A stretch of 64,000 nt of DNA, taken from positions 1 to 64,000 of the forward strand of contig NZ_LOPS01000027.1 in NCBI RefSeq assembly GCF_001481295.1, given 5' to 3'. Positions 15,624 through 51,261 of the stretch are shown here, piece after piece. The notes below the pieces were generated by a model that was not told the DNA's origin, searched no databases, and saw only the letters and a list, made by a program, of their open reading frames with translations. The first letter of the stretch is position 1. The number at the start of each line of letters is the position of its first letter. This stretch comes from Candidatus Methanomethylophilus sp. 1R26. Its GTDB lineage: Archaea; Thermoplasmatota; Thermoplasmata; Methanomassiliicoccales; Methanomethylophilaceae. The translations under genes and the position numbers were made by a program.

Positions 15624-15930
15624 ATCGGCAGATCGGGAGGACTGTTCATGGCGATTGCGGACATTCGGGCGATGATCTGGACGGCTGCTGATTCAGAATC
15701 GTCACTGAACGGAGGACCGACAGAACCAGAATCAGCGGAGCAAGCAGCGGTCATCGGTCAATCGGGATTGGGTGTGACTCATTTTCCGTTGGTATGCGTA
15801 GCGTGTTACTATTTACAAGAAAGTATTATTAACGAGCGTCTGATACAAGGTCCCAGTTCGGAGAGGCCGCACGGCCGCATTTCCGCTGTATGCGCGGCTG
15901 CGGAAGGGGTGTCCCGAAACAGGTGAAATG
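15624..15930 (+). promoter_or_regulatory. Gene-free stretch before the first ABC importer
   Basis: About 300 bases without a credible gene. The only feature I can support is an AT-rich pocket at about 15807-15835 (TACTATTTACAAG, then TATTATTAAC), a likely TATA region roughly 100 bases before the binding-protein start. No hairpin or repeat stands out. Confidence 0.35.
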
Positions 15931-17454: not shown

Positions 17455-17598
17455 AACTTCCAAACTCCTTCAGAGGGGCCCGTGTCCATGCGGCACGGCC
17501 CCTCCTCTCGATATGGTCTATGGTCTGCCGGCGGGGACGAAGTGGATCTCGTTGCCCGCTGTACCGCGGGGAAATGCCGCGGACCGGAGCCGAAAAGC

Positions 17599-18729: not shown

Positions 18730-18730
18730 A

Positions 18731-19665
18731 ATGGTCGTGCCGATAGTCACTGAGGACCTGTCCGCTTCCTACGATGGCAGGACCAACGTCTGGAGCGGCA
18801 TAAACATCACCATCGACCGTCCCGGTCTGGTGGGGATCCTCGGCCCGAACGGGGTCGGGAAATCCACTCTCATGTACACGATCAACAAGATAATCGACCC
18901 CAGCGGCGGCCATGTGTACCTCGGGGGCAGAGATATTGCCGAGATGGACTACAAGGATATAGCCAGGTTCGTCGCCTACGTCCCTCAGGTGTCCAACGAG
19001 ACTTTCTCGATGAGCGTCATGGACACCGTCCTCATGGGGCGCTATCCGGTTTCCGGCTTCAACACCTCCGACGATGACATCAGGATCGCCGCCAACTGCC
19101 TCGATCTGATGCACATGTCGGAATTCGCGATGCGTCAATTCGACGAACTGTCGGCAGGGCAGCATCAGAAGGTAATGATCGCCAGGGGACTGGCCCAGGA
19201 GCCGGACATCCTTATGCTAGACGAGCCGACCGCGAACCTCGACGTGTACTACCAAATGTACGTCATGAAGATCCTCCGCGAGATCGCCCACAGGAACGGC
19301 ATCATCGTGCTGACCATCTGCCACGACCTCAATGTGGCCTCGAGGTTCTGCGACCGCGTGATACTCCTGTCCGATGGGCATGTCCACTCGGACGGAACGC
19401 CAGAGCAGGTCATCACCGAGAAGAACATCCAGGATGTGTACGGGTCAGGTCGGAGGTCCGCAATGTGGACGGAAGGCCGTATATCATCTTCCACTCAGAC
19501 GATGCGGCCGAACTTGACAGGGATCCCGGGACGATCTATCGGGTGGGGAACTACAAGGGGAAGGAGGCGAGGATATCGGATGCCAAGAATCATTCATCCG
19601 CCTTTCTCAGTGGCCGCTTCGGGAAAAGAACAGGACGCAGAGAAAATGAGGATGAAAGGAAGTAA
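18731..19665 (+). CDS. FecE/BtuD-type ABC ATPase 1 (frameshifted near the end)
   Basis: Walker A GPNGVGKST, signature LSAGQHQKV, Walker B ILMLDEP and the switch His in TICHDLN are all present. The frame breaks in the G run at 19442-19444; with one more G the tail reads YGVRSEVRNVDGRPYIIFHS and ends at 19665. Without the repair the frame would run to 19693 with an arginine-rich nonsense tail. The restored C-terminus adds about 60 residues beyond the nucleotide domain, partly basic. It forms a three-gene importer with the two genes before it. Confidence 0.87.
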
Positions 19666-19696
19666 TGGCCTTCCTGCCTTGATTTTCAAATAAACT

Positions 19697-21872: not shown

Positions 21873-23092
21873 TCAGTTCCCGGCGCTGGCCTTGTCGATG
21901 GCGGCGTCGATCTCCTTCTGGAGGTTCGACGGCAGCCCTTTGATGCCGCCGACCAGGAAGCCGCGGACGATCATCGAGACCGCCTGGTCCTCGGTGAGGC
22001 CGCGGGACATGAGGTACTCGATCTGATCCTGGGCGATCTTTCCGACCGCCGCCTCGTGGGTCATGTCGACGTCGGCGCAGGTGGCGATCAACTCGGGGAT
22101 AGCCTGGGTGGAGCCGCCGTCCTTCAAGATGATGGACTTGCACTCCAGGTGGGCCTTGGCCCCGGGCGCGTTGCCCTCCAGCCTCCCGCGGGCGATCATC
22201 TTGCCTCCGTAGGTGATGTTCCTGCTGAGGATCTCCGCGCCGGTGTTGGGAGCGTTCATGACCGCGCATCCCCCGGTGTCGATGTTGGAGTTGCCGTGCG
22301 CGATGCACATGGTGTTGAAGCTGCAGGTCGCCCCTTCGCCGTCGAGGTAGGCGGTGGGGAAGGTCTGCACGGTGCCGACAGGGTCCAGGACGATGTAGTT
22401 GTTGACGTACCTGGCGCCTTTCTTCAGCATGACGTTGGTCCTCGGCCTGACCGCGGTCTGGGTGTTCCAGCTGTGGATCATGGTGAAGGACATCGAGGAG
22501 TTCTCCCCGACGTACATCTCGGAGACGCGACGTGGAGGGCGTCGTTGGCGTGATGGACCGAGGTGCACCCGGTTATGATGTCGAGGGACGCGTTGTCGTC
22601 GACGATGATGATGTTGTGCAGGTTCTGTATGGACTTGTCCTGCCCCAGCATCATGCAGGTCTGGACGGGGTATTTGAGGTGGTATCCCGGCTTGACGTAG
22701 ATGAAGTACCCGTCGGAGTCCTCCTCGTAGGTCTTGGCGGTGTACTTGTCCTTGGCAGGGTCGACGGCCTTCCAATAGTAGTCCTTGACCCAGGGGTAAT
22801 GCTTGAACGCCAGCCTGGTGGGCTCGATGATGACCCCCTCCTGCGCCCTGTTGGAGCAGTGGGTCATGCCGTTGTCCATGAACAGGATGGTCCCGGAGCG
22901 GGCGGAATCGTCGGTGTCCACGCCGACGTTGATCATCTTGAGCTTGAGGTCGTCGGGGGCATCGGCCAGGTTCTCTATCGGGGCCGCCTTGTCCCTCTCG
23001 CCCTCTTCGTAGCGGTCCAGGTCGATGTCCGATCCGAACGCGGCCTTCTTGCCGAGTGCCTTCTTTATCTCAGAATCATCGCGCTGGGTCAT
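21873..23092 (-). CDS. sufB: Fe-S cluster scaffold SufB (frameshifted)
   Basis: SufB/SufD family scaffold on which Fe-S clusters are assembled with SufC. The N-terminal part (ALGKKAAFGSDIDLDRYEEG) and the beta-helix core (SMSFTMIHSW, LDGEGATCSFNTM, then HEAAVGKIAQDQIEYLMSRG) match archaeal SufB. The frame is lost at about 22528; one missing C restores the join HVGVSEMYVGEN. The ATG at 23092 overlaps the sufC stop by four bases. Only SufB and SufC are present, the minimal archaeal SUF set; no SufS cysteine desulfurase is seen in the window. Confidence 0.88.
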
Positions 23093-23814
23093 TCGTCGTC
23101 AACTCCGTATCCGTTCTTCTTGATCTCGCCGAGGATCTTGTCGGGGTCGCCTTCGCGGACGACCTTCCCGTGGATGAGCACGAACGCCCTGTCCGCGCTC
23201 ATGTAGTCGAGGATCTGCCCGGTATGGGTGATGACGAACGCCGAGACCTTCCTCTTGCGGACGATGCCTGTCTCCGTCCCGTAGATGAGCTCATGGACCT
23301 TCCTGCCGATGAGGCCGATGTTCTCCAGGTCGACCCCGGACTCCGGCTCGTCGAGCATGACGAAGTCGGGCTCCTGAGCGGCGAGCTGCAGGAGCTCGGA
23401 CCTCTTGATCTCCCCTCCGGAGAACCCGACGTGACGTCCCTGTCCATGAAATCGGACATGCGGAACTCCTTCTCGCGCCCCGTGGTCCCCTTCCCGTTGG
23501 CGGCGGTGGCCTCCACGAGGGTTCCCAGCTTGACGCCGATGACGTTGGGGGGCCTCTGCATCATGATCCCGATGCCGAGTTTCGCACGCTGGTCGACGGT
23601 CATGTGCGTGATGTCCTTGCCCTTGAATATGATGGCCCCGCGGGTGACCGTGGTCTGTCCGAATCCCATGATCGCGCTCATGAGGGTCGATTTCCCGGAA
23701 CCGTTGGGTCCGAAGAGGACGCAGGTCTCTCCCTCTTCGACCGACAGGTTGACACCTTTCAGGATCTCGCGCTCCGGCGGAGACATGCAGGTCCTTGATC
23801 TCAAGAAGTGGCAT
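23089..23814 (-). CDS. sufC: SufC ATPase (two frameshifts)
   Basis: ABC-type ATPase that drives cluster assembly on SufB. Walker A GPNGSGKST, the Q-loop MMQRPPNV, signature GFSGGEIKRSE and Walker B FVMLDEPESGVDLENI are visible across three frame segments. Indels lie at about 23775 and 23433. The ATG at 23814 (MPLLEIKDLHV) is chosen because a TATA-like element at 23841-23850 places transcription start almost on it, giving a leaderless message; the frame is open to 23859. It is the first gene of sufCB and divergent from the gene at 23893. Confidence 0.85.
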   Translation of the reverse strand: MPLLEIKDLHVSAGARDPERCQPVGRRGRDLRPLRTQRFREIDPHERDHGIRTDHGHPRGHHIQGQGHHAHDRRPACETRHRDHDAEAPQRHRRQAGNPRGGHRRQREGDHGAREGVPHVRFHGQGRHVGFSGGEIKRSELLQLAAQEPDFVMLDEPESGVDLENIGLIGRKVHELIYGTETGIVRKRKVSAFVITHTGQILDYMSADRAFVLIHGKVVREGDPDKILGEIKKNGYGVDDE

Positions 23815-37490: not shown

Positions 37491-37567
37491 GGGCAAGTAG
37501 ATCAGCCCGGTAGATCGCTGCCTTCGCAAGGCAGAGGCCGCGCGTTCGAATCGCGCCTTGTCCACCA
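37491..37567 (+). tRNA. tRNA-Ala (anticodon CGC)
   Basis: Cloverleaf is complete: acceptor GGGCAAG/CTTGTCC, anticodon stem CTGCC/GGCAG around TTCGCAA (anticodon CGC) and T stem GCGCG/CGCGC around TTCGAAT. The third acceptor pair is G-U, the alanine identity element. Discriminator A is followed by an encoded CCA. No intron is needed. Confidence 0.95.
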
Positions 37568-39159: not shown

Positions 39160-39798
39160 ATGAAGGATTTCATCCGTGCTAGGACTGCTGAGCAGATCGC
39201 TGAGAGGCGTAACGAGATCGTCAACGCCTGCGAGCAGATCTACATGGAAGGAGGATTCGATGCGGTGACCTTCAAGGCCATATCGGAGAAGACGTCCTTC
39301 ACCCGTCCGTCCATCTACAACTATTATGCGACCAAGGAGGAGGTCATGCTCGACCTCTTCGAGCGCTATTTCGTCAGATGGTACGGCGAGATCTTCGCGG
39401 CCACTGATTCCGCGCCTTCCCTGACGGCGAACGCCCTCTGCAAGATCATAACGGATGTATCCGACCGCTATCAGAACCTGTTCCTCATGTTCAGCGATCT
39501 GAGGAACATCGAAGAGGGCTGCAGGATCGAGAGGATAGCGGCCTTCAAGAAGAAGTACTTCGAGTTCAACGACCGCGTGGCGGACCTCATCGCCCGCAGG
39601 TTCCCGAACACGTCGGCGAAGGTCGCGTGCTGCTTCATCGAGGGGCTGCTCATCCTTTTCCACGGAACATATCCGATAAGCTATCTCTCCGATAAACAGA
39701 AGGAAGCGATCAAAGCGGCCGGCGGCACCGTCCCCTGCAGGACGTTCAGGCAGATATTCTACGGCCAGATGGTCCGTCTGACCGGCATGCTCGAATGA
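39160..39798 (+). CDS. TetR family transcriptional regulator 2
   Basis: 212 residues: HTH of the TetR type (AERRNEIVNACEQIYMEGGF, then FKAISEKTSFTRPSIYNYYATKEEVM) and an all-helical ligand domain with TetR_C-like YISYLSDKQK region. Intact from ATG 39160. It lies immediately before the metal-chelate importer/nitrogenase-like operon, same direction, and may bind the palindrome at 39916 (inference). Confidence 0.85.
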   Translation: MKDFIRARTAEQIAERRNEIVNACEQIYMEGGFDAVTFKAISEKTSFTRPSIYNYYATKEEVMLDLFERYFVRWYGEIFAATDSAPSLTANALCKIITDVSDRYQNLFLMFSDLRNIEEGCRIERIAAFKKKYFEFNDRVADLIARRFPNTSAKVACCFIEGLLILFHGTYPISYLSDKQKEAIKAAGGTVPCRTFRQIFYGQMVRLTGMLE

Positions 39799-39907: not shown

Positions 39908-39934
39908 TTTTAATAATTGGATGAGTCATCCAAT
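39908..39934 (+). promoter_or_regulatory. TATA box and 19-bp palindrome before ABC importer 2
   Basis: TTTTAATAAT (39908-39917) is a TATA-like element. It runs into a perfect palindrome ATTGGATG-AGT-CATCCAAT at 39916-39934, ten bases before the predicted start codon. The arrangement suits repression by a dimeric regulator such as the adjacent TetR or a metal-dependent repressor. Confidence 0.6.
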
Positions 39935-39943
39935 ATTGGTGGT

Positions 39944-41283
39944 ATAATCCAAAGCAAATCATCATCGCCGCGGCCGCCGCGGTCATAATCGCCGTTGCCG
40001 GGATAGCGGCCATCGCCGTCCTCGGGAATGACGACGGCCAGGATAAGACGTTCAATCCCTACGACTCGGACAGCGTCCGCCTCAAGATCCTCGGCAACGC
40101 CGACGGAAGCGACGCCATCGACTCCGATGATGTGGACCTGATAAACAGGATCATCGAGGCCAACAGCGACGAGGATGAGACCAAGCACATCGACTGGAAG
40201 ACCCAGTACCCGTTCGCCGATGCCGACAACGACGGCGATGTGGATGCAGACGATGCAGCGCTCGTCCAGAAGTTCATCAACAAAGAATCTGCGAAGATGT
40301 ATTATCTCAACTACTACGGGAATGTGACCTACGTCAATTATCCCATCGGGCAGCACATCGGGGCGGAGTACCTCCAGCTGCAGATCCTCCCCATCATCCA
40401 TTCCTACAGCATGCTGACCGCTATCGATACCACGACGCCCACCATGTACGGCGACAGCATGTTCCCCGGTATCACCAAACTGGAATCCCTCGGCAACTGG
40501 AGGGAGATCACCGTCGAGACCATGACCAAGCTCAACAGCGAGGGCAAGCTGGACACCCTTCTCCAATGGACCGGAGGCCAGAACAGCGATTACCTCTGGG
40601 ACAAGGCCTATGAATCGGGCATAGCCGATAAGGTGTCGATCGTCATCGTCCCCTGCCAGGGGCCCAGGTGCATCGAGGGGATCCTCGAGGTCGCCTGCAT
40701 GCTCGGAGACCAGTCCCTCTCGGACGACTACCGCGAGTGGTACGACAACATCATCGACAGCTTCAGCGGCATCACCGAGAAGAAGACGGTGACCGCGGTC
40801 AGGGGATACAGCACGGACCAGAGCACCATCGCCGCTTTCGGGTCCGATCAGGGACCTGCTCTCTGGTTCAACGAGATCATCAACTTCCAGGAAGCCTACG
40901 TCGGGAAGACCAACTTCACCAGCCTCGGCTACGAGGGATTCTCGTCGAGCGCGACTGATGAGGTCATCGTCATGTTCCAGAAGCCGGCGAGCGTCACCTA
41001 CGAAGGCTTCAACAGTTATGTCGAGGAGATATACAAGGCACTGTTCCCCGAGACGAGCCAGTACAAGAACCAGACCCTGTACGCGATCTCGTTCGAGATC
41101 ATGCCTTATGCCGCCGGGCCGGCAGGATGCTACATCCTCGCCTCGTACCTGTACCCCGACATGTTCGACACCGAGAAGGCCCTCGACTGCCTTCAGGAGT
41201 ACCTGGACAGCTTCGGAATCCGCTCGGGAGCGGACGCCAGGCAGGGATACACGTACACCGGATCCGGATACGGGACCTCCTGA
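39944..41283 (+). CDS. ABC importer substrate-binding protein 2 with dockerin-like module
   Basis: N-terminal anchor (AAAAVIIAVAGIAAIAVLG) is followed by two dockerin-like F-hands (LGNADGSDAIDSDDVDLINR and DADNDGDVDADDAALVQKFI). A BtuF/FhuD-type binding domain with about 330 residues follows. Same architecture as the protein at 15931. No start codon exists in frame; at 39944 the sequence reads ATAATCC, and inserting one G gives ATGAATCC (MNPKQIIIAAA) right after a GGTGG ribosome site. I therefore assume a lost G. It heads an operon with permease, ATPase and two nitrogenase-like genes. Confidence 0.82.
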
Positions 41284-41300
41284 GGAGATGACGGCGGGGC

Positions 41301-42419
41301 ATGGACATGTCGGACGACGACCCGGTGGTCAGATCGGCCAAGCTCTGGTGCGACGGCACCGGGGAAGCTGCGGACATCTTCCGGGCGGTGAAGGAATACC
41401 GCACTTCGGCGCTCAGGAAGCTCGGCTTCATGTTCGTCTGCGTCGCCGCGGCCGTAGCGGTCGCCGGGCTCTCGCTCGGATACGGGACGATGAAGATCCC
41501 GTTCTCCGAATGCTACAGCATCCTCTGGGACCACATCACGGGGGACATCGGGGACACGCAGCTCGACTACATCGTGGTGAAGGAGCGCCTGCCCCGCATC
41601 GTCACCGCCCTGGTGACCGGATGCGCCCTGGGGGTCTCCGGATGCGCCATGCAGACCCTCCTGAAGAACCCTCTGGCCGACCCTTACACCACAGGCATAT
41701 CGAGCGGGGCCGGCTTCGGCGCCACCATCGCGGTGGTCGCCGGAGTCTCCCTGGTGGCGGGGGACTATGCGATAGTGGTCAACGCCTTCGTGTTCTCCCT
41801 CATCCCCCTCGCTGTCATACTGACCATATCCAAGATCAAGGGCGCGGACCCGACGACCATGATCATGGCGGGGATCGCCGTCATGTTCATTTTCAACGCG
41901 TTCACCACCCTGTTCAAGCTCAACGCCGACCCCGACTCCCTGGCTAAGATCTACGCCTGGACGGTCGGAACGGTCAGCGACGCCAAATGGAACAGCATAG
42001 CGCTGATGGCGGCCGTGACCGTCGCAGGCGTCGCAGTCACCCAGATGTGCGCCGCGAAGCTGAACATCCTCTCCGCCGGCGACGACTCGGCCAAGTCCAT
42101 GGGGATAGACGTCGAGGACTTCAGGATCGTCCTGCTCCTCGTCGTCTCAGTGATGGTCTCAGTCGTGGTGAGCTTCACCGGCCTCATCGGGTTCGTCGGA
42201 TTGGTCTCGCCGCACATCTGCAGGATATTCGTGGGGGCGGACAACCGCTACCTCGTGATCTCCTCGGCGATGTTCGGCGCGGTGCTGCTGGAGGTCGCCG
42301 ATTTCGTCGGCAGGACGATAATCGCGCCTGCTGAGCTCCAGGTCGGAGTGGTCACCGCTCTCATCGGCGGCCCCATGTTCCTGTACCTGATCGTCAAGCA
42401 GCGCAGGAGGGCATGGTGA
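41301..42419 (+). CDS. FecCD/BtuC-type ABC permease 2
   Basis: 372 residues with about nine to ten helices. Typical segments are GCAMQTLLKNPLADPYTTGI and SFTGLIGFVGLVSPHICRIF. The first 35 residues are charged and cytoplasmic. Intact from ATG 41301, 17 bases after the binding-protein stop. It is clearly paralogous to the permease at 17599 and should carry a related chelate. Confidence 0.9.
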   Translation: MDMSDDDPVVRSAKLWCDGTGEAADIFRAVKEYRTSALRKLGFMFVCVAAAVAVAGLSLGYGTMKIPFSECYSILWDHITGDIGDTQLDYIVVKERLPRIVTALVTGCALGVSGCAMQTLLKNPLADPYTTGISSGAGFGATIAVVAGVSLVAGDYAIVVNAFVFSLIPLAVILTISKIKGADPTTMIMAGIAVMFIFNAFTTLFKLNADPDSLAKIYAWTVGTVSDAKWNSIALMAAVTVAGVAVTQMCAAKLNILSAGDDSAKSMGIDVEDFRIVLLLVVSVMVSVVVSFTGLIGFVGLVSPHICRIFVGADNRYLVISSAMFGAVLLEVADFVGRTIIAPAELQVGVVTALIGGPMFLYLIVKQRRRAW

Positions 42420-42423
42420 TAAG

Positions 42424-43200
42424 ATGCAGGTGAAGATGGAGGATGTCGACATCGGCTACGGCGGGAAAGCGATCGTCCGCGGCGCCGATTTCACGCTCGA
42501 GGGCCCGGGGCTGAACTGCATTATCGGGCCCAATGGGGTGGGGAAGTCCACCCTGGTCAAGTGCATCGACGGGCTCCTCCCGCCGATGAAGGGGAAGGTA
42601 TCGATCGACGGCGCCGACCTGTCCTCGCTGAGCAGGAAGGATATCTCCGCCAAGATCGCCTACGTCCCGGTGCAGGCGGAGGACCTCTTCTCGATGACGG
42701 TCTTCGACACCGTGATGATCGGCCGCTCCAACAAGTACCGCTGGAGGGCGAGGGCGGAGGACATCGCCAAAGTGAAGACGGTGCTGGAGGTCTTGGGGAT
42801 CGGCGATCTGGCCCAGTGCAGGTTCAACGAGCTCTCCGCGGGACAGCGCGAGCTTGTCGCCATCGCGCGCGGTCTGGTGCAGGAGACCGAGATAATCATA
42901 CTTGACGAACCCACTGCGAACCTTGATCTGGGTCATCAGCTTTTCGTCACCTCTCTGCTCCATGAGATCGCGATGAGGAAGGGCGTCATGGTCATCATGA
43001 TAAGCCACAACGTGAACATCGCCTCGATGTTCGCCGACAGCATCCTGCTCATGGCCCCGCCCGGGACGGTCAAGAAGGTCGGGACTGTGGGGGATGTCAT
43101 CGAGGAGAGGACGATCTACGACACCTACAGGGTGAGGTCCACGGTCATCACCCACGAGGAACGCCCGGTGATCCTCCTAAACCGCCGCCTGGAGCCGTGA
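42424..43200 (+). CDS. FecE/BtuD-type ABC ATPase 2
   Basis: 258 residues, intact: Walker A GPNGVGKST, Q-loop VPVQAEDLFSM, signature LSAGQRELV, Walker B IIILDEPTANLD and switch His in MISHNVN. Starts four bases after the permease stop. Its own stop overlaps a possible GTG start of the next gene and lies two bases before that gene's ATG at 43203, so the importer and the nitrogenase-like genes are tightly linked. Confidence 0.92.
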   Translation: MQVKMEDVDIGYGGKAIVRGADFTLEGPGLNCIIGPNGVGKSTLVKCIDGLLPPMKGKVSIDGADLSSLSRKDISAKIAYVPVQAEDLFSMTVFDTVMIGRSNKYRWRARAEDIAKVKTVLEVLGIGDLAQCRFNELSAGQRELVAIARGLVQETEIIILDEPTANLDLGHQLFVTSLLHEIAMRKGVMVIMISHNVNIASMFADSILLMAPPGTVKKVGTVGDVIEERTIYDTYRVRSTVITHEERPVILLNRRLEP

Positions 43201-43202
43201 AC

Positions 43203-45276
43203 ATGCCGTCCGCAGGATTCTCAGTGGCCGTCTACGGCAAGGGCGGGATCGGCAAATCGACCGTCTCATCCAATCTGGCATATGTCCTGGGGAAGAGAGG
43301 GGAGAAGGTCACGCTGATCGGGTGCGACCCGAAGCACGACTCCTCCCGCTCCCTCCTCTCCGGGAAGGGCCTGCGCACGGTCGTGGGCTACCTGGCCGAG
43401 ACCGCCCCGCAGGACAGGCGCCTGGAGGACGTTTCCGCCGTCGGGGACGCGGGCGTGACCTGCATAGAGGCGGGAGGCCCGGACCCGGGGGTAGCTGCGC
43501 CGGGAAGGGAATAATCATGATGTTCCAGGCGCTGGAGATGATGGGCGCCGACAGGTCGGGGATCACCATCTACGATGTCCTCGGGGACGTCGTCTGCGGA
43601 GGCTTCGCGGTCCCCATGCGCAGAGGGCGCTCGGACGCCGTCTACATCGTGACATCCGGCGAGGCGATGTCCCTCTATGCCGCCAACAGCATACTCCGCG
43701 GAGAGAAGCGGTTCGAGGAAGGAGGAGGCAAGATCGCCGGCCTGGTCCTCAACCGCAGGGGTGTGCCGGGGGAGGATGCCCTGGTCGATGCGTTCGCCGA
43801 GGCTGTCGGCGTCCCGGTGGCCGTCCGCATTGGCCGCTCGCAGCTGTTCGCCGAGGCAGAGAGGGCCGGGAAGACTCTCTGCCGCATGTTCCCCGGATCG
43901 GAGGAGGCGGCGGAGTTCTCCGCACTGGCGGACGACCTGACAGCCCTCTCGTCCGGGCGCAGGGCGCTCAGCACGCCTTCGCCTTTGACCGATGCCCAGC
44001 TCGACAGGCTGCTGTCGGAAGGGAGGATCGAGGGGAGGGGGGAGTACGTCCCGGCGGCCGCGAAGGCTCCCGCATCCGGGATCCGGATGGTGCCTCCGAG
44101 GATCGGAAGAGGGCCGATGTCCGCGGTGCTCGAGGCCGGCATGGTGTCCGACATCCCGGCCGTGGTGCACGGTCCGCGCGAATGCTGGGTCTCTATGATG
44201 GGCGAGTTCAGGGGCCGCCGGCTGTACGGAGGGCCCCCTGCCTCCGGAGGATGGAACATCATCTCGTCATCGCTGTCGTCCGCCGGCCTCGCCCTCGGAG
44301 GCGCGGACAGCCTCAGGGCGACCTTGGACGGGCTGGCGTCCGAAGGATATCCTGCCGCCATCGTCCTGACGACGTGCCAGACCCAGATGTCCGGGGATGA
44401 TGTCGCTGCCGTTGCCTCGGAGACAGAGAGGGCCCATCCCGGCATGCATGTCATCATAGCCGACGGCGGGGCCGCCAAGACCGAAGGGGACGCCCACATG
44501 GACGTCCTGAGGGGCCTGGCGGACCTCATCGATGCCGACGTATCGCCCGACATGTCATTGCTGGCGGTGATGGACGACACTTTCGAGAGGCTCGGCAGAG
44601 GCGACAACCTCCGTTTTGCGGACCGCATCATCGCAGGCACCGGCATCAGGCGCACGGCGGGCTTCCTGGAGGACTGCAGTTCATACACAATCAGGAACCT
44701 GAAGCGCGCAGGCATCGCGGTCATGGGGGAGGACAGGACCGGATGCAGGGAGCTCCGCGGGATCCTCTCCGCCAAAGGCATCCGTTTCATGGACGGTGCC
44801 CTGCCCAGCGGGTTCTCTGAGACCCTGCGGTGGCTGGATTCCCTGGAGAGGTTCTCCGGGCATGATACCTCTGTTGCAGCCTCGAGAGCGGAGAAGGAGT
44901 ACTCCGGGGCCCTGGAGAGTTTCGGGAAGGGGGTGTCCGGGCGCAGGGTTGCCGTCGCCACCGGCCACAGGGACGAGGTCTCCTGGATCGCCGAGGCGCT
45001 CTCCGACGCCGGCGCGACCCGCTCGTGTACCTCGCAGGCTCGGGAGGGACGGGGGACGGAGGGTTCGCAGGGAGCCCGGAGCAGATCAGGGAGCAGATCG
45101 CGGCGGATGAGCCGGACCTCGCGGTCTGCCCGTTCTGGGCGCGTCCCGGAGCGGGGATACGCACCATGGGCCTTCCGGAGACGTTCGTATCGCATCTCGC
45201 CTCGGCAGGATTCCTGGAACGTGCCGGGAACGTACTGAGGGCGGAGACAGATCTCGGATGGAGGAGATGGAGATGA
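43203..45276 (+). CDS. NifH-NifD fusion, nitrogenase-like reductase (two frameshifts)
   Basis: About 691 residues. Residues 1-260 form a complete NifH-type reductase: Walker A GKGGIGKST at 12-20, CDPKHDS at 41-47, and both [4Fe-4S] ligands, Cys99 (GSCAGKGI) and Cys132 (GDVVCGGF). After a linker, residues about 300-691 form a NifD-like component-1 chain. Likely cluster Cys are 328 (HGPREC) and 392 (TTCQTQMSGDD), with Cys492 further on. No FeMo-cofactor ligands are recognisable. Missing G residues at about 43491 and 45016 split the frame; the fusion region itself (43500-45010) is one unbroken frame, so the fusion is not an artefact of repair. ATG 43203 has GGAG at 43191. Not nitrogen fixation; probably reduction of an imported chelate or tetrapyrrole (inference). 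Confidence 0.85.
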
Positions 45277-46436
45277 CAGACGGATTGGGAGGGGCCGGAG
45301 GATGCGCCCCGGGAGCGTACGTCGGAGGGGTGATGGCCGCCCAGGGGATACCCGGAGCGGTGCTGGTGCTGCACGGGCAGAACGGATGCAGGAAAGGGCT
45401 GTCGCTCTGCAACCGCCTTTATCCGAGGAAGGACTCGCCGAGGGGCCCGGACGGGCACCGCTCCGTAGAGTTCACGGGGGTCACTGCAGCGGATTATACC
45501 AATGGGGCCTCCTACAGGAAATTGGAGGAGAAGCTCTCCGCGCTCAGCGGAAGGTACGGGATGTACCTGCTGTTCACGTCGCCGGGGCTTTCGATAGTCG
45601 GCGACGACTGCCTCCGGGCGGCCCGTGCGGCCGGAACGGGGGACAGGGTGGTCTCCTTCGATCCCGATCAGCTCGGCACCGGATGCCCGGAAGGCTTCGA
45701 CACCGTCGTGAGGGAGGTCCTGAGGCGTACCGTGCCGGACAGGGAGGAGGCGATCCCCGGAACGGTCAACGTCCTCGGGCTGAGCATCATGCACAAGGAC
45801 TGGAGGTGCGTGAAGCAGGAGGTCGGGCATCTTCTCGGGAAGGCGGGGCTGAAAGTGCTGAGCTTCCCGGGAGCCGGCAGCTCCCTGGAGGAGCTGCGCG
45901 CATCGGCATCGGCCGAGTTCAACATCGTCCTCTGCCCCGAGCACTGCGCGAAGACCGCCGCCTTCTATACGGAGATGTTCGGGACCCCGGCCGTATCGTC
46001 CGGGGAGTCGCCCGTGGGGTTCGATGCCTTCGAGAGGTTCTACTGCCGGGTCTCGGATGAGACCGGGCATGAGACCGAGCACGGCTTCCAGATGCTGAAG
46101 AACTCCCGCCGCCGGGCCTACGAGTGCATACTTGCCTCCGACACGGACCTGACGGGGCTGTCTTACAGGATCGATTCCGTTCCGTCCACGGCGGATCCGC
46201 TGGGCAGATGGCTGGAATCGTCCCTCGGCATGGTGCCCGCCGCCGGCAGGCCCGACGTTCTCTTCGCGCCGGGGGATGACGCCCTCTTCGCCGAGCGCTC
46301 CGGGCGTTGCGGGACGGGCATCGACATCGGGTTCCCGTCATCCGCGTATGTGGACTTCTCAAAGGCCCCTGTGATGGGCCTCGACGGCGCCATGTACATC
46401 CTCGGGTCCCTGTTCAATAGGGCCGGGCGCTCATGA
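45273..46436 (+). CDS. NifK/BchB-like component-1 partner
   Basis: 387 residues related to NifD/K, BchN/B and CfbD. The start MTDGLGGAGGCAPGAYVGGV places Cys11 where NifK has its first cluster Cys; Cys39 (HGQNGC) matches the second; at the third position (FTSPGLSIVGDD) Cys is missing, though Cys113 follows directly. With Cys328 and Cys392 of the fusion this gives four Cys, enough for one [4Fe-4S] cluster at the interface. ATG 45273 overlaps the stop of the fusion gene (ATGA) and has GGAGG eight bases before it; ATG 45258 is less likely. The stop overlaps the convergent AAA gene by six bases. Confidence 0.8.
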   Translation: MTDGLGGAGGCAPGAYVGGVMAAQGIPGAVLVLHGQNGCRKGLSLCNRLYPRKDSPRGPDGHRSVEFTGVTAADYTNGASYRKLEEKLSALSGRYGMYLLFTSPGLSIVGDDCLRAARAAGTGDRVVSFDPDQLGTGCPEGFDTVVREVLRRTVPDREEAIPGTVNVLGLSIMHKDWRCVKQEVGHLLGKAGLKVLSFPGAGSSLEELRASASAEFNIVLCPEHCAKTAAFYTEMFGTPAVSSGESPVGFDAFERFYCRVSDETGHETEHGFQMLKNSRRRAYECILASDTDLTGLSYRIDSVPSTADPLGRWLESSLGMVPAAGRPDVLFAPGDDALFAERSGRCGTGIDIGFPSSAYVDFSKAPVMGLDGAMYILGSLFNRAGRS

Positions 46437-47537
46437 TTTGTCGAACTCGCCTTCCCTGAGCATCTTCAGGAGGTTGTTCCCCCTGCGGATGCTCTTATCG
46501 GTGAGGCTGGCGAGCGATCTGAGCTCCCCGTCCTTGAGCAGGAAGCAGCAGTCGGGGCGGACGTCCTCGCCGGCGATTATCTCGGGGTTGTGGGTGACGA
46601 ATATGCACTGGGTCTTGTTGCCGGCGATTATCCTCTCGATGAAGCTGTCGGATGTGCGGTAATCGAACAGGTCGTCGAAATCGTCGAGGAAGACGAAGCC
46701 CCCGCGCCCGCGGGAGCGTTTCCACCAGCAGTACAGGCGGCAGATCAGGGCGGTCCCGCGGGACGCCGTCTCGAAGAACGGCAGCCTCTTGCTGCCTTTG
46801 ACGATGTACAGCCTCCCTCCGTCGGAGACGAGGTCGGCCTCTATGGCGCACACGTCCCTGAGGAACGACCGGAAGTCCCCGACGAGGCCGTTGGAGATGA
46901 TGTACTCCTCGTTGTCGTTCTCGGTGCCGGTGAGGCCGAGATGGAAGTCGTGCTTCCACATGGCCATGTAGTACATCGAGCTCCGGGCGGTCTCGCGCAT
47001 CCCCTCGGTGACGTCGTCCCTGCTGAGGGAACGGTCCAGGATCCTCCTGAGCAGGGACTCGGAGCCGTCCAGGCCTTCTGTGCTCACGTTCCCGGCCCCG
47101 ATCGACGCCAGGCTGAACGAATTGCCCGAAGGGTCGTCGAGATCGTAATCGAAGACCGTCCTCCCGTTCACAGAGTACATCTCGGAGGCCAGGAGCGACG
47201 GGGATTTCCTCGAATATTCATAGACCGCGGTGGACCCGCCGAAGGCGAACTCGTAATGGAAGACCGCCCGGTCTGACGTTCCGTAGCCGTTGATGAAGCA
47301 GTCCGGGTCCTTCTGCCCGACATTATTGTCGAGTCCCGTCAGGGTGGTTATGATGTCGCAGAGGGCATACCCGAAGCTCGATTTCCCGGACCCGTTGTTG
47401 CCGATGAGCACTATCTTCCCGAGAAGGTCGCCGCGGACGTACATCTTCCCGAAACGGTAGTTCTTCTTGTCGGTGAAGTCGAGCTTCGCCCTCCCGCGGA
47501 AGCAGCGGTAGTTCTCGACCCAGAACCTGATCAGCAT
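46431..47537 (-). CDS. AAA family ATPase, OLD/RloA-like
   Basis: 368 residues. N-terminus MLIRFWVENYRCFRGRAKLD and Walker A GNNGSGKSSFGYAL are typical of SMC-like AAA_15/AAA_21 ATPases. The signature region is weak; Walker B is FVFLDDFDDLFD, with Asp where Glu is usual, and the H-loop reads IFVTHNPEIIAG. No nuclease (Toprim) domain follows. Such proteins occur in defence and abortive infection loci as well as alone; no defence partner is seen here. Intact. Confidence 0.78.
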   Translation of the reverse strand: MLIRFWVENYRCFRGRAKLDFTDKKNYRFGKMYVRGDLLGKIVLIGNNGSGKSSFGYALCDIITTLTGLDNNVGQKDPDCFINGYGTSDRAVFHYEFAFGGSTAVYEYSRKSPSLLASEMYSVNGRTVFDYDLDDPSGNSFSLASIGAGNVSTEGLDGSESLLRRILDRSLSRDDVTEGMRETARSSMYYMAMWKHDFHLGLTGTENDNEEYIISNGLVGDFRSFLRDVCAIEADLVSDGGRLYIVKGSKRLPFFETASRGTALICRLYCWWKRSRGRGGFVFLDDFDDLFDYRTSDSFIERIIAGNKTQCIFVTHNPEIIAGEDVRPDCCFLLKDGELRSLASLTDKSIRRGNNLLKMLREGEFDKS

Positions 47538-47617: not shown

Positions 47618-49420
47618 TCAGTCGCACCCTTCGAACTGGCTGTCGTAGAGGCTGCGGTAGAACCCGTTGAGGGCCATCAGCTCCGAATGGCTTCCCTTCT
47701 CCACGATGCTCCCGTCCCTCACCACGAGGATGATGTCGGAGTTCACGATGGTCGACAGGCGGTGCGCGATGACGAACGACGTCCTTCCGCGCATCAGGTG
47801 GTCCATCGCATCCTGTATCCTGCGCTCGGTTATGGTGTCCACCGAGCTGGTTGCCTCGTCGAGGATGAGCAGCGGCGCGTCCTTGGCCATCGCCCTGGCG
47901 ATGGATATCTGCTGCCTTTGGCCCGAGGACAGCGATGAGGCAGCTATCTTCGCATCCAGGCCGCCGGCGTGCGACTCGAGGAACGGTCCCAGGCCGACGT
48001 CTCCGAGGATCTCCTCCAGGCGGGAATCCGATACACCGCCGCATCCGTAGGCCACGTTCTCCCTTATCGTCCCGTCGAAGACCCAGGAGTCCTGGAGGAC
48101 CATGCAGAACAGGGAGCGCACATCTTCGCGCTTCATGTCGTATATCGAGACGCCGTCTATCCTGATGTCGCCGCTGTCGGCGTCGTAGAAGCGCAGCATG
48201 AGGTTCGCAAGAGTGGTCTTGCCGGCCCCCGTCGGGCCGACGATGGCCACCTTCTCCCCCGGCCTCACGGAGATGTTGAGGCCGCGGATGACCTCCCTCC
48301 CGGGCACGTAAGAGAACCTGAGGTCATCGAACTCCACCTCGCCCCTGACCTTCCCGGGGCGGGCGGTCTTGGTGGACTCGTCGGGCATGTCGGGGGTGTC
48401 CAGGAAAGCGAAGATCCTGTCCGCCGATGCGGACACGGACTGCATCGAGGTCAGCGATTCGGACAGCATCATGAGAGGCCTCGAGAGCATGCCGGAATAG
48501 ACTATGAAGGCGACTACCACCCCGTACCCGATCTCGCCCTCGACGACCAGCATCGAGCCGAAGACGCAGACCGCTACGTACGAGATGTTGGAGGCGAAAT
48601 TGATGGCGGCCGGCATTGTCCCGCCCATGGTCCTGGCCAGGAAGGAGCTCCTAAACAGGTCCCTGTCGACCTCGGCGAAGCGCTCCATGGCGCCCGCTTC
48701 GCCGTTGTAGGTGCGGACGATCTCGTGCCCGTAGTAGTTCTCGTCCACGATGCCGTTTATGAGGCCCAGGTCCCTGCTCTGCCTGCTGAAGTACTTCCCG
48801 GAATGCCTGATGATGAACAGCATGAACAGCAGGCCGGCGGCCGTGGGGAGGGCGGAGAGGGCGGCGAGCTTCCAGTCGGTGTACAGCATCATGATCACCG
48901 CGCCGACGGCGATCGTCACCGAAGAGACCGCCTGGGTTATGCAGTCGGCGCTCTGGTTCCCGATGATGTCGGCGTCGTTGGTCATCAGGCTCATGACGTC
49001 GCCGGTCGTGCGGCCGTCGTAGTAGTTCAGGGGGACGGTGTTGATCTTCCTGCTCAGGTCCCTCCTGACCAGGTTGGCTATCTTCTCGGAGGCGGCCGGG
49101 ATGAGATAGTCGCTGGCGGTCATGAACAGCATCGACAGGGCGTAGACGGCCAGCAGGAAGAAGGCGGTGCCGGCGATGAGGTCCGTGTCGATGTCCCTGC
49201 CCCCGAGCACGGCGCCGGAAATCTCATCGGTTATGGCCTCGAGGTACTGGGGCCCGATGAGAGAGAAAACAGTGGACAGCACCGAGAATGCTATGCCTGC
49301 GTACACCTCGCGGCGGTAATCTCCCATGTAGCCGATGAGCCGGCGCAGGGTCCCCCGTATGTTCTTCGGCCTCTCGCCGGAGGCCGCCCACCTCGGCGCG
49401 CTGCCCGGGTTCCCCGGCAC
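47618..49420 (-). CDS. ABC exporter half-transporter B (MdlB-like)
   Basis: 600 residues: six-helix type I exporter domain (YRREVYAGIAFSVLSTVFSL, then YLIPAASEKIANLVRRDLSR) and nucleotide domain with Walker A GPTGAGKTTL, signature LSSGQRQQISIARAM and Walker B LLILDEATSSVD. The start is GTG 49420, one base after the stop of the partner gene, so the two halves form a heterodimer. Likely exports lipids, peptides or drugs. Intact. Confidence 0.9.
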   Translation of the reverse strand: MPGNPGSAPRWAASGERPKNIRGTLRRLIGYMGDYRREVYAGIAFSVLSTVFSLIGPQYLEAITDEISGAVLGGRDIDTDLIAGTAFFLLAVYALSMLFMTASDYLIPAASEKIANLVRRDLSRKINTVPLNYYDGRTTGDVMSLMTNDADIIGNQSADCITQAVSSVTIAVGAVIMMLYTDWKLAALSALPTAAGLLFMLFIIRHSGKYFSRQSRDLGLINGIVDENYYGHEIVRTYNGEAGAMERFAEVDRDLFRSSFLARTMGGTMPAAINFASNISYVAVCVFGSMLVVEGEIGYGVVVAFIVYSGMLSRPLMMLSESLTSMQSVSASADRIFAFLDTPDMPDESTKTARPGKVRGEVEFDDLRFSYVPGREVIRGLNISVRPGEKVAIVGPTGAGKTTLANLMLRFYDADSGDIRIDGVSIYDMKREDVRSLFCMVLQDSWVFDGTIRENVAYGCGGVSDSRLEEILGDVGLGPFLESHAGGLDAKIAASSLSSGQRQQISIARAMAKDAPLLILDEATSSVDTITERRIQDAMDHLMRGRTSFVIAHRLSTIVNSDIILVVRDGSIVEKGSHSELMALNGFYRSLYDSQFEGCD

Positions 49421-49421
49421 G

Positions 49422-51178
49422 TCAGGCCCCTCCTGCGAGCTGCGATTCAGCTATGCTCCTGTAGATGGGGCAGGATTGCATCAGCTGGTCATGGGTGCCG
49501 AGGCCCACGATCCTCCCGCCGTCCACCACGGCGATGCGGTCCGCGTCCATGATGGTCCCCACCCTCTGCGCGATGATGATGCGGGTGGCCCCCTCGGTGC
49601 TCTTCCGGAGGGATTCGCGCAGAGCTAGGTCCGTCTTGAAATCGAGCGCCGAGAAGGAATCGTCGAAGACGTAGATCTCCGGGCGCATGCACACGGCCCT
49701 GGCGATGCAGACCCTCTGCTTCTGCCCGCCGGAGATGTTCCTGCCGTACTGGGATATGCGGGTATCGAGGCCGTCGGGGGAGGCGCTGACGAACTCCGAC
49801 GCCTGCGCGATGTCCAGCGCCTCGCGTATCTCTGCTTCTGACCTCTCCCCGCCGTTTCCCCCATACCCGACGTTCTCCCTTATGGTCCCGGTGAAGATGA
49901 CGGCGTCCTGGGGCACGTAGCCTATCCTGGAATGCAGGGCGGTCTGCCGGAACTCCCTGACGTCCGTCCCGTCCACCAGCACCTGCCCGGAATCAGGGTC
50001 GTAGAGGCGCGGGATGAGCCTCGCGATGGAGCTCTTCCCGCTCCCGGTGGGGCCGATGAAGGCGATGGTCTCCCCCTTCCCGACGGAGAAGCTCACATCG
50101 CTCAGGGCGGCCGTGTCAGAGCCGGGATAGGTGAAGGTGACGTGCCTGAACTCGACGGTGCCCTCCCTGCCCGGCTCGCCGGATTCCCTGGGCCCGTCCT
50201 TCACAGAGGCTCGTGGCCGATGACCTCCTCCACGCGCCGGGACGCCACCATGGCGCGGGGGAACATCCTGACCACGCCGTTCATCATCATGAACGCCGAG
50301 ATGATCTGCGATGCGTAGGAGGTGAAGACCACCATGTCGGAGAACTCGGACATCTTGGCCGCCGTGCCGGACGACGATGCGATTATCCCTGCTCCGATCC
50401 AGTAGATAGCCAGGGTCAGGAAGTTGCTGACCGAGCTGAATATCGGGTGCATCGGGGCCATCGCATGGACGACGGAGAGGTTGTTGTCCAGGAGCTCGTC
50501 GCTGGCCCTGTCCAGCTTCTCCCTCTGGACGGCCTCCGTACCGTAGGCGCGTATGGTGCGCAGGCCCTCCAGCTCTTCCCTGGCGGCCCGGTTGACCCCG
50601 TCGGTGAGCCACTGGATCCGCTTGAACCTGGGGACTATGAAGTACGTGGTGAAGACAGTGACGCAGATCAGGACGGCGACCGCGGCGGCGGTGGCGGCCG
50701 TCCATTCCCAGTGCTTGCCGGAGATCATCACGATGGCGAAGGCCGCGGTGAGGGGCGCCTTTATCATCAGGGTCAGGCCCCTGGCCGTGAACTGCATCAG
50801 CTGGTAGACATCATTGGTCGAGCGGGTGGCCAGGCTGGCGGCCGAGAAGGTGTTCATGTCCTCCTCGGAGAAGGACTGCACCTTGGCGAACTCCAGACGG
50901 CGGAGCGTGCTTCCCAGGGATGCGCCGATGCGGGCCGCGACGGTGGAGGAGAGGACGGCCAGGATCAGGCTGAGGAGGGCGGCGGAGACCATCTTGATGC
51001 CGTTCTCGGTGACGGCGGAGTTCGAGGTGTCCCCGGACACCACCTGCTCCTGGATGGCGTCGGTCATGTCGTTCATGTAGCCGGGGATGCTGATGTCCAG
51101 GTACGCCTGCCCCATTATCAGGCATGCCAGGACGGCGATGAGGGCCCACCCTCCTTTCCCCAGGTATCTGAAAATCAT
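49422..51178 (-). CDS. ABC exporter half-transporter A (MdlA-like, frameshifted)
   Basis: About 586 residues. Six-helix domain from MIFRYLGKGGWALIAVLACL, then nucleotide domain with Walker A GPTGSGKSSI, signature ISGGQKQRVCIARAV and IYVFDDSFSALDFKTD. In the last motif the catalytic Glu after Walker B is Asp-Ser, typical for the degenerate site of heterodimeric exporters. A missing base in GG at 50208 (plus strand) splits the frame between the two domains. First gene of the exporter pair. Confidence 0.88.
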
Positions 51179-51261
51179 GAAACGCCCTGCCGGTTCGGTC
51201 GGGCATCGCCCTGCCGATAATTATCCTTTCACAGGAACAACAGGATTGGATTGGAAAAACC

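What the first reader, a model, noticed from the sequence alone, without database searches (positions are those of the whole stretch)
39944..46436. Five-gene operon joining a metal-chelate importer to a NifH-NifD fusion and a NifK-like protein
Seen: binding protein, permease, ATPase, then a single chain with complete NifH motifs (Walker A, both Fe-S Cys) running unbroken into a NifD-like chain, then a NifK-like gene, with gaps of a few bases or ATGA overlaps. Known nitrogenase-like enzymes (BchLNB, CfbCD, methylthio-alkane reductase) use separate NifH proteins and, as far as I know, are not tied to a BtuCDF/FhuBCD-type importer. Inference: an imported chelate (corrinoid, haem, siderophore) is reduced by this complex, to free its metal or remodel its ring. 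This is my top candidate for an undescribed system.
Basis: partly seen in the sequence, partly recalled or inferred. Interest (0 to 1): 0.92.

Follow-up and report, generated by a model that had tools for sequence, protein, structure and literature searches.

The report
Nitrogenase-like reductase in a B12-uptake regulon
A gut-type methane-producing archaeon carries an operon in which a fused nitrogenase-like, ATP-driven electron pump is tied to an importer for metal-containing ring molecules, and a DNA switch shared with vitamin B12 genes suggests that the system processes imported B12-type compounds.

Summary
The operon is real: binding protein, FecCD permease, ATPase, NifH-NifD fusion, NifK-like protein. 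SufB in the window and the genome's CfbD are broken likewise, so I read these as assembly errors. Intact fusions occur in about half of 101 related genomes and in some bacteria; those sampled form one clade apart from Nif, Bch, CfbCD and Mar-like rows.

The fusion and an ABC linkage are already in print without a function (Dos Santos 2012). Not found in print here: (1) fusions lie near FecCD importers well above background (16 of 26 within 5 kb, 2.6 expected); (2) some relatives place CobN, ChlI/D or CbiZ beside them; (3) a palindrome, TTGGATN5ATCCAA, lies upstream of the window operon and, in the order, of fusions, importers, CobN, CbiX/CbiD, CbiM and CbiA/CbiP-type genes, which suggests a cobalamin/cobalt regulon; (4) the window's NifK-like subunit models closest to DPOR BchB, a tetrapyrrole reductase.

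Best reading: corrinoid uptake plus ATP-driven corrinoid reduction. Substrate and chemistry are inferred.

The parts
39160..39798 (+). TetR-family regulator gene directly upstream; role in this operon not shown
   Evidence: PF00440 6e-8, PF17929 4e-7
39916..39934 (.). perfect palindrome ATTGGATGA-G-TCATCCAAT, a member of the order-wide operator-like motif TTGGATN5ATCCAA
   Evidence: 0 mismatches, 0.03 matches expected in the window at up to 3 mismatches
39943..41283 (+). substrate-binding protein with N-terminal dockerin-like segment; start codon missing in this assembly (first literal start GTG 40132)
   Evidence: profile match to Peripla_BP_2-type proteins 98.1%, E 1e-13, negative control 0.2%; PF01497 hits 2 of 11 family members
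41301..42419 (+). FecCD/BtuC-type permease
   Evidence: PF01032 3.2e-91
42424..43200 (+). BtuD/FhuC-type ABC ATPase
   Evidence: PF00005 3e-28; best NCBIfam models haem, F420-0, FecE and corrinoid ATPases, all below cut-off
43197..43508 (+). NifH-NifD fusion, piece 1: NifH residues about 1-97 with Walker A (first frame)
   Evidence: PF00142 3e-30; tblastn frame 3
43496..45018 (+). NifH-NifD fusion, piece 2: rest of NifH with both Fe-S cysteines, running openly into the NifD-like domain
   Evidence: PF00142 2.5e-33 and PF00148 1.3e-26; tblastn frame 2
45019..45276 (+). NifH-NifD fusion, piece 3: C-terminal end of the NifD part (third frame), stop TGA 45274-45276
   Evidence: tblastn frame 1 at 45079-45270
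45258..46436 (+). NifK-like subunit (ATG 45258, or ATG 45273 in an ATGA overlap); model closest to DPOR BchB
   Evidence: PF00148 1e-31; AlphaFold2 pLDDT 85; VIA-align Z 33.5-36.9 to 12 DPOR entries
46431..47537 (-). AAA_21 ATPase, convergent neighbour, kept beside the fusion in the two closest relatives with long contigs (L049, L051); role unknown
   Evidence: (PF13304 1e-11)
47618..51190 (-). heterodimeric ABC exporter pair, related to the pair beside the fusion in L059; one gene frame-broken near 50.2 kb; membership in the system uncertain

Best explanation
This is a corrinoid (cobalt-tetrapyrrole) uptake operon that carries its own nitrogenase-type reductase. The binding protein captures an extracellular corrinoid, and the FecCD permease and ATPase bring it in. 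The NifH domain, covalently tied to the NifD domain, hydrolyses ATP and passes electrons through its [4Fe-4S] cluster to a [4Fe-4S] cluster at the NifD/NifK interface. In the window clade its ligands would be two NifD cysteines, one NifK cysteine and one non-cysteine ligand, much as DPOR uses three cysteines and one aspartate (recalled). From there electrons reach a corrinoid held between the two subunits. The likeliest chemistry is low-potential reduction of the cobalt centre (towards Co(I)) or of the ring, so that adenosylation, CbiZ remodelling or CobN/ChlI/ChlD metal exchange can follow. Shown here: gene content, folds, one clade for the sampled fusions, importer linkage, tetrapyrrole-enzyme linkage in some relatives, an operator-like motif shared with cbi genes. 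Inferred: substrate, direction and product of the reaction, cluster type, that the motif is an operator, and the regulator.
For: FecCD within 5 kb of 16 of 26 fusions (20 genomes) against 2.55 expected from genome densities (P 4e-11), within 8 kb 19 of 26 against 3.61. CobN, ChlI/D or CbiZ within 8 kb of 12 of 40 fusions of the order, 2 of 15 in the named scan and 4 of 9 split relatives, against 0 of 57 other NifH genes of that scan. In L057, L061 and L062 one cluster holds binding protein, permease, ATPase, CbiZ, ChlI, ChlD, fusion, K, with CobN nearby. Four of five neighbouring CobN proteins scanned pass the CobN equivalog cut-off (981, 973, 923, 914 vs 822 bits; the fifth, L050, is cut by its contig end); L061 CobN is nearer to solved CobN (766 bits) than to the haem dechelatase HmuS (379 bits). 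Motif TTGGATN5ATCCAA: 27 exact sites in 5 genomes against 0 reversed controls; by my classification 21 of 27 lie by an importer, fusion, CobN, ChlI, CbiD/CbiX or CbiM gene. It lies within 400 bp upstream of fusions in 5 (exact), 12 (up to 1 mismatch) and 22 (up to 2) of 38, against 1.7, 3.3 and 5.5% of random stretches of the same loci. Window K: the 12 best entries are all DPOR BchB/ChlB, Z 33.5-36.9, next NifEN 31.9; the BchB model is matched by 16 of 16 K proteins. NifD C88 equivalent in 55 of 55 fusions, C154 equivalent in 53 of 55 (2 truncated), NifK C95 equivalent in 56 of 56.
Against: No CobN, CbiZ or ChlI/D was found in the window itself; that link comes from relatives, and most fusions (28 of 40, 13 of 15) have no such neighbour within 8 kb, some on short contigs. 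Three genomes with fusions (G016, G028, G029) show no CobN at all. Importer linkage is not unique to this clade: 11 of 57 other NifH genes have it too. Loci are related, so the P values are too small. Six of the 27 exact motif sites had no clearly related target, and in three further genomes several sites lie by unrelated genes or no gene. A protein next to an importer need not act on the imported molecule. The window copy is broken in three places and might be decaying. The BchB likeness of K is a fold likeness; no active-site residue for a tetrapyrrole was tested. The nifE model also matches 14 of 16 K proteins.
Confidence: 0.6

Rival explanations
1. Haem or another iron/magnesium porphyrin is imported and reduced, with CobN-type proteins acting as dechelatases, as HmuS does in Bacteroides.
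For: HmuS is a CobN-family haem dechelatase encoded in a haem-acquisition operon (PMC12583661, passages); the ATPase's best NCBIfam match is the haem ATPase model, below cut-off; K resembles BchB.
Against: Four of five neighbouring CobN scanned pass the cobaltochelatase cut-off, and L061's is nearer CobN than HmuS; CbiZ and the motif shared with CbiD, CbiX and CbiM point to cobalt corrinoids. No Feo gene was among the motif targets that got a name; one target, an NAD_binding_7 protein, could be a precorrin-2 dehydrogenase, which haem and B12 paths share (recalled).
Confidence: 0.15
2. The reductase acts on a siderophore or another metal chelate, or couples metal import to assembly of a metal cluster, as Dos Santos et al. 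2012 suggested for nitrogenase-like genes beside ABC transporters.
For: FecCD importers carry many chelates; importers also stand by 11 of 57 other NifH genes in the scan; PMC3464626 passages.
Against: It does not explain CbiZ, CobN and ChlI/D neighbours or the motif shared with cbi genes.
Confidence: 0.12
3. The window copy is a decaying pseudogene of an otherwise functional family.
For: Three apparent single-base losses in about 5.1 kb; the closest relatives L049, L050 and L051 are intact in the fusion.
Against: SufB and an ABC exporter in the same window, and the genome's CfbD, needed for F430, are broken in the same way, so base-level assembly error is the simpler cause; permease, ATPase, K and the palindrome are intact.
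Confidence: 0.15
4. The chains are CfbCD, DPOR or nitrogenase paralogues with a chance neighbour.
For: Best NCBIfam matches are CfbC and nifH for the NifH part and BchB for K.
Against: The tabulated scores are below the curated cut-offs; a separate NifH of the CfbC kind and a frame-broken CfbD exist in the same genome; fused D and H each form one clade apart from these families; linkage well above background.
Confidence: 0.04

Closest known systems
[quoted passage not shown] 2012, PMC3464626; PMC11237513 cluster 443; 'fused nifH/nifE' in PMC4153887)
   Same: Same architecture, also in archaea and Firmicutes; the authors also saw nitrogenase-like genes beside ABC transporters and a two-plus-one cysteine pattern (in M. 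labreanum and D. hafniense) like that of the window clade.
   Different: No function, no cobalamin motif and no CobN/CbiZ link in the passages I read.
Light-independent protochlorophyllide reductase (BchL, BchN, BchB)
   Same: NifH-type ATPase plus a heterodimeric component 1; window K is closest to BchB in fold. The C95-equivalent cysteine of K falls beside the BchB motif HAPQGD (one column off in the alignment), whose Asp is a cluster ligand (recalled).
   Different: NifH part fused to NifD part; scores far below the BchB cut-off; importer instead of bch genes.
Ni-sirohydrochlorin a,c-diamide reductive cyclase CfbCD
   Same: The NifH-like part scores best against CfbC; both would belong to methanogen tetrapyrrole metabolism in this reading.
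   Different: Separate genes elsewhere in the same genome; CfbD needs no K partner (recalled); scores below cut-off.
Corrinoid salvage by BtuCDF and CbiZ
   Same: Importer of the same class; CbiZ within 8 kb in 5 of 40 fusions of the order.
   Different: Known salvage does not use a nitrogenase-type reductase (recalled).
HmuS haem dechelatase with the hmu operon (PMC12583661, passages)
   Same: Haem uptake plus a CobN-family protein in anaerobes.
   Different: CobN here is nearer to cobaltochelatase; a nitrogenase-like reductase is added; the paper states that the role of archaeal homologues is unclear.

Membership tests
Nitrogenase (NifDK) | FeMo-cofactor ligands Cys275 and His442 in the alpha chain | tested here: not met
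   Cys at the C275 column in 1 of 55 fused rows, His at the H442 column in 0 of 55 (40 gaps); alignment is loose there
DPOR (BchLNB) | scores above the curated cut-offs of BchB and BchL | tested here: not met
   window K 43.6 vs 490 bits; the two NifH pieces of the window 83.6 and 56.4, intact L049 184.1, vs 345 bits for BchL
DPOR (BchLNB) | BchB-like fold of the second subunit | tested here: met
   12 highest entries all DPOR, Z 33.5-36.9; a shared fold shows no function
CfbCD | CfbC and CfbD curated cut-offs; separate genes, CfbD without K partner | tested here: not met
   NifH part of L049 285.6 vs 402 bits; fusions hit TIGR03282 at 18.6-33.8 vs 268.4 bits in the 8 genomes searched; a separate CfbD, frame-broken, in own genome
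Methylthio-alkane reductase / other Mar-like | falls in the Mar-like clade | tested here: not met
   trees of D and H place Mar-like rows apart, 99* and 100*; the Mar-like label of L144 is recalled, not from a curated model
[quoted passage not shown]
   in intact relatives; in the window only after allowing two frame changes
Class of FecCD/BtuCDF importers | FecCD permease, ABC ATPase, Peripla_BP_2-type binding protein in one operon | tested here: met
   the binding protein by profile only
BtuCDF (vitamin B12 importer) | transport of corrinoids | not testable with these tools
   permease 209 bits vs BtuC cut-off 334; substrate needs binding assays
Cobalamin/cobalt regulon of this order | motif TTGGATN5ATCCAA upstream of the operon and of cbi genes | tested here: met
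   regulator unknown, so regulation itself is not shown

The most novel reading that the evidence does not exclude
A corrinoid-reworking machine driven by a nitrogenase-type ATPase: the fused reductase forces electrons into imported corrinoids (super-reduced cobalt or a reduced ring), so that either Co(I) is made for adenosylation, filling the gap of a corrinoid reductase in archaea (gap recalled), or CobN with ChlI/ChlD can run metal exchange and strip or replace cobalt in foreign corrinoids. It would be the first nitrogenase-superfamily enzyme of B12 salvage that I know of, and a role for archaeal CobN proteins that have had none.
Probability: 0.35. Interest if true: 0.9.

Novelty: new variant of a known kind. 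Interest (0 to 1): 0.75.

Why it matters
Nitrogenase-like enzymes with no function have been listed for over a decade. A motif shared with cobalamin genes and a recurrent link to FecCD importers, and in some relatives to CbiZ and CobN, gives this group a testable substrate class. It would add B12 metabolism to the chemistry of the nitrogenase superfamily, give archaeal CobN proteins a context, and bear on how methanogens of animal guts, which depend on corrinoids for methylotrophic methane formation (recalled), compete for B12 and cobalt.

Tried and rejected
Pfam and NCBIfam on the window binding protein gave nothing; PDB sequence search with the L051 protein gave only weak matches, mostly to dockerin-like chains; its AlphaFold2 model was poor (pLDDT 41.7, three sequences), so I used profile comparison with a negative control. 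Plasmid search with the window K found nothing. Rfam found only a tRNA in the window at gathering thresholds, no cobalamin riboswitch. I first read a cysteine in the window K (GGCAPG) as a swap for the lost NifD C62, but the three clade mates lack it, so I dropped that idea. The first layout script missed the fusion in L063 behind a longer reverse ORF; the HMM scan recovered it. Paper searches on siderophore and haem links listed unrelated papers. A chance-neighbour reading was disfavoured by the linkage test. In one search the third fusion of L052 counts as a miss although a FecCD gene lies just beyond the fetched stretch, so the count is conservative. In one search, L103 (short contig) was left out of every group, L093 as a copy of L080 was left out, and L157, a NifH-NifD fusion of another kind, stands among the controls. 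VIA-align saw only Foldseek's candidates, so absence of other folds there means nothing. One exact motif site of G074 (C43) was not fetched, and the list for G065 was cut.
Full report
What is in the sequence. The window is part of a 1.72 Mb assembly in 50 contigs, 82.85% complete. Its family (f1) holds G038, whose contig L080 is letter for letter the same as L093, recorded as Thermoplasmata archaeon isolate SIG5. The nearest named row to the window K in the tree is from Methanomassiliicoccaceae, so I take the genome as a member of the Methanomassiliicoccales (inference). The chain is not unbroken. Against intact relatives it aligns in three frames, 43218-43508, 43496-45016 and 45079-45270, as if one base were missing near 43.50 and near 45.02 kb; the binding-protein gene likewise lacks its start codon near 39.94 kb. 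Walker A is in the first frame and both Fe-S cysteines are in the second. The NifH-to-NifD junction is open. SufB at 22526 and an ABC exporter near 50.2 kb are split between frames too, and so is the genome's CfbD. I therefore favour base-level assembly errors. About 50 of 101 related genomes hold a fusion whose match spans at least 450 of the 499 query residues in one open frame of 600 aa or more (my hand count of the rows listed). Of the loci fetched by place, 38 fusions are longer than 500 aa and 37 longer than 600 aa; the other, in L055, stops after 534 aa, where one search counts an in-frame TAG.

What family it is. In a tree of 86 component-1 rows the 32 fused NifD parts included form one clade (SH-aLRT 99), the window sitting with L049, L050 and L051 (99); NifD/E/Anf, Mar-like and Bch rows lie elsewhere, and CfbD is a long branch among the K rows (quick method, deep branches uncertain). 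In a NifH tree of 61 rows the 24 fused rows included are one side of a branch (100), apart from CfbC-like, Nif and Mar-like rows. Tabulated scores against the curated CfbC, nifH, BchL and BchB models are below cut-off. The NifD part keeps the equivalents of C88 (55 of 55 rows) and C154 (53 of 55, 2 truncated) and, outside the window clade, C62 (51 of 55; lost in all 4 of window, L049, L050, L051); the NifK part keeps the equivalent of C95 (56 of 56). Cys at the FeMo-cofactor position 275 is present in 1 of 55 and His at 442 in 0 of 55, the latter mostly gaps. So nitrogen fixation is not expected. The window NifK-like protein was modelled at pLDDT 85. In the second-look alignment the 12 best entries are all DPOR BchB or ChlB, Z 33.5-36.9, and the next is NifEN at 31.9; the BchB model is matched by all 16 K proteins scanned, the nifE model by 14. 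DPOR reduces a tetrapyrrole.

Importer linkage. FecCD permeases are common in these genomes, 2 to 22 each in 26 genomes, so chance had to be measured. In 26 fusions of 20 genomes a FecCD gene lies within 5 kb in 16 (2.55 expected, P 4e-11) and within 8 kb in 19 (3.61 expected, P 2e-12); within 3 kb it is 6 against 1.81 (P 0.007). The loci are related, so the P values overstate the case, but the link recurs in other lineages: fusions of Treponema L098 and Methanoregula L090, and split H, D, K genes of Phascolarctobacterium L113 and Sporomusa L161. Within 8 kb it is seen at 25 of 40 fusions of the order (31 of the 40 with at least 12 kb of flank), 5 of 15 of the named scan (8 of 15 with such flank) and 3 of 9 split relatives. 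It is not exclusive: 11 of 57 other NifH genes from the same scan have an importer; in the NifH tree these 11 lie outside the fused clade.

Tetrapyrrole enzymes. Neighbours in relatives are CobN, ChlI, ChlD and CbiZ. Within 8 kb, one or more of these occurs at 12 of 40 fusions of the order, 2 of 15 fusions of the named scan, 4 of 9 split relatives and 0 of 57 other NifH genes (the HMMs were built from fusion neighbours, which could favour them somewhat). L050, in the window's own clade, has CobN next to the fusion with a motif site (1 mismatch) in between. Four of five CobN proteins scanned pass the CobN equivalog cut-off of 822 bits (981, 973, 923, 914), with BchH scores lower in each; L050's is cut by the contig end and scores 323. 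L061 CobN is nearer to solved CobN (766 bits) than to HmuS (379 bits). The window itself shows no CobN, CbiZ or ChlI/D, and 7 of 26 genomes searched have no CobN match, three of them with fusions.

A shared motif. Directly upstream of the window operon is a perfect palindrome at 39916-39934. With up to 3 mismatches the own genome has four further sites (reversed control 0); two of them, on contig C50, lie upstream of binding-protein genes on either side of another fusion; the sites on C4 and C49 were not examined. The core TTGGATN5ATCCAA with at most one mismatch occurs in all 41 genomes examined, 3 to 25 per genome, against 0 to 2 for the reversed control; exact sites number 27 in five genomes against 0. 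By my reading, 21 of the 27 lie by a binding protein, permease, ATPase, fusion, CobN, ChlI, the divergent CbiD/CbiX pair, or CbiM-CbiN. The other six lie by a Sel1 protein, an unscanned ORF that looks like a topoisomerase (recalled), an unclear ORF, an ORF without Pfam hit, an NAD_binding_7 protein, and a ribonucleotide reductase or anthranilate synthase. In three further genomes I fetched 6 sites of G062, 6 of 7 of G074 and the 5 of G065 that the cut list showed. Targets include a CobB/CbiA protein, binding proteins, a B12-binding protein and a CbiP-like protein, but also a radical SAM protein, an amidohydrolase, NAD synthase, an FtsZ-like, an M50-like and a dehydrogenase gene, ORFs without hit, and two sites with no gene within 350 bp. 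Upstream of fusions (400 bp) the site is exact in 5, within one mismatch in 12 and within two in 22 of 38, against 1.7, 3.3 and 5.5% of random stretches of the same loci. In L074 exact sites precede the fusion, four binding-protein genes and CobN. The simplest reading is a cobalamin or cobalt regulon of the order. A predicted cobalamin regulon with an unknown regulator is mentioned for Pyrococcus (PMC10746257, passage); I could not compare its motif.

How it most likely works. Imported corrinoids arrive oxidised; adenosylation needs Co(I), a very low potential (recalled). A NifH-type ATPase is a natural device for such electrons. A DPOR-like D/K pocket could hold a corrinoid. CbiZ would then remodel it, and CobN with ChlI and ChlD could insert or remove the metal. 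The literature leaves archaeal CobN without a role: PMC12583661 says that such homologues are not tied to other cob genes and that their functions are unclear (passages), and PMC8305020 speculates on cobalamin salvage (passages). The motif and linkage here speak for salvage. Exporters also recur near fusions (17 of 40 and 3 of 15, against 1 of 57 controls) and in the window (47.6-51.2 kb), which would fit disposal of a spent ring or ligand, but this is weak.

What is known. Dos Santos 2012 (PMC3464626, passages) described the fused nifH-nifE ORF followed by nifN-like genes in archaea, Firmicutes and Deltaproteobacteria, and noted ABC transporters beside nitrogenase-like genes, proposing metal transport for cofactor assembly. 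PMC11237513 and PMC4153887 (passages) mention the fusion in Methanomassiliicoccales. No paper in the held library contains CobN, nitrogenase-like and ABC transporter together, and searches on corrinoid, haem, siderophore and cobalamin-regulon terms listed no paper whose title or abstract start shows this link (listings capped). Subscription papers are largely missing from that library, so the link may exist elsewhere.

Verdict. The architecture is known, the function is not. New here, as far as these searches go, are the corrinoid context from two lines (neighbours and motif), one clade for the sampled fusions, and the BchB-like second subunit. I put the corrinoid reading at 0.6, with the exact reaction open.

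Noticed in passing
window 15844-19690 (+): A second binding-protein, FecCD permease and ATPase set of the same importer class; no NifH or NifD match in that stretch.
   Followed up: no
window 21876-23098 (-): SufB-like gene split between two frames at 22526, a sign of indel errors in this assembly.
   Followed up: partly
G000 contigs C50, C6, C1 (L069, L070, L071): Further NifH-NifD copies in the same genome; C50 lies between two importers, each with a motif site; the C6 and C1 copies are frame-broken; C1 has CobN beside it.
   Followed up: partly
G000 contigs C43 and C13 (L072, L073): Two contigs carry the CfbC-type NifH region at about 89-91% identity with many one-base gaps; possible strain mixture or contamination.
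   Followed up: partly
L106, L108, L109, L112, L114, L120, L123, L133, L143, L146, L165: A different NifH group in Bacillota, Spirochaetota, Synergistota and Actinomycetota also sits beside FecCD importers; in the NifH tree it groups with CfbC-like rows of Methanomassiliicoccales.
   Followed up: partly
L113, L125, L151, L161: Negativicutes carry unfused H, D and K genes with CobN and, variously, CbiZ, ChlI/D and importers: a possible cultivable system for testing the same idea.
   Followed up: partly
L157 5178-8237 (+): A Bradymonadales MAG has a NifH-NifD ORF of about 1019 codons whose NifD part scores weakly (58 bits); perhaps an independent fusion. It was not put in the trees.
   Followed up: no
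window 46431-47537 (-); L049 and L051: An AAA_21 ATPase stays beside the fusion in the window's clade; role unknown.
   Followed up: no
L074 (G058): Two fusions, several Peripla_BP_2 proteins, CobN and an exporter within 19 kb, with seven exact motif sites.
   Followed up: partly
window 37491-37564 (+): A tRNA gene, the only Rfam match in the window at gathering thresholds.
   Followed up: no
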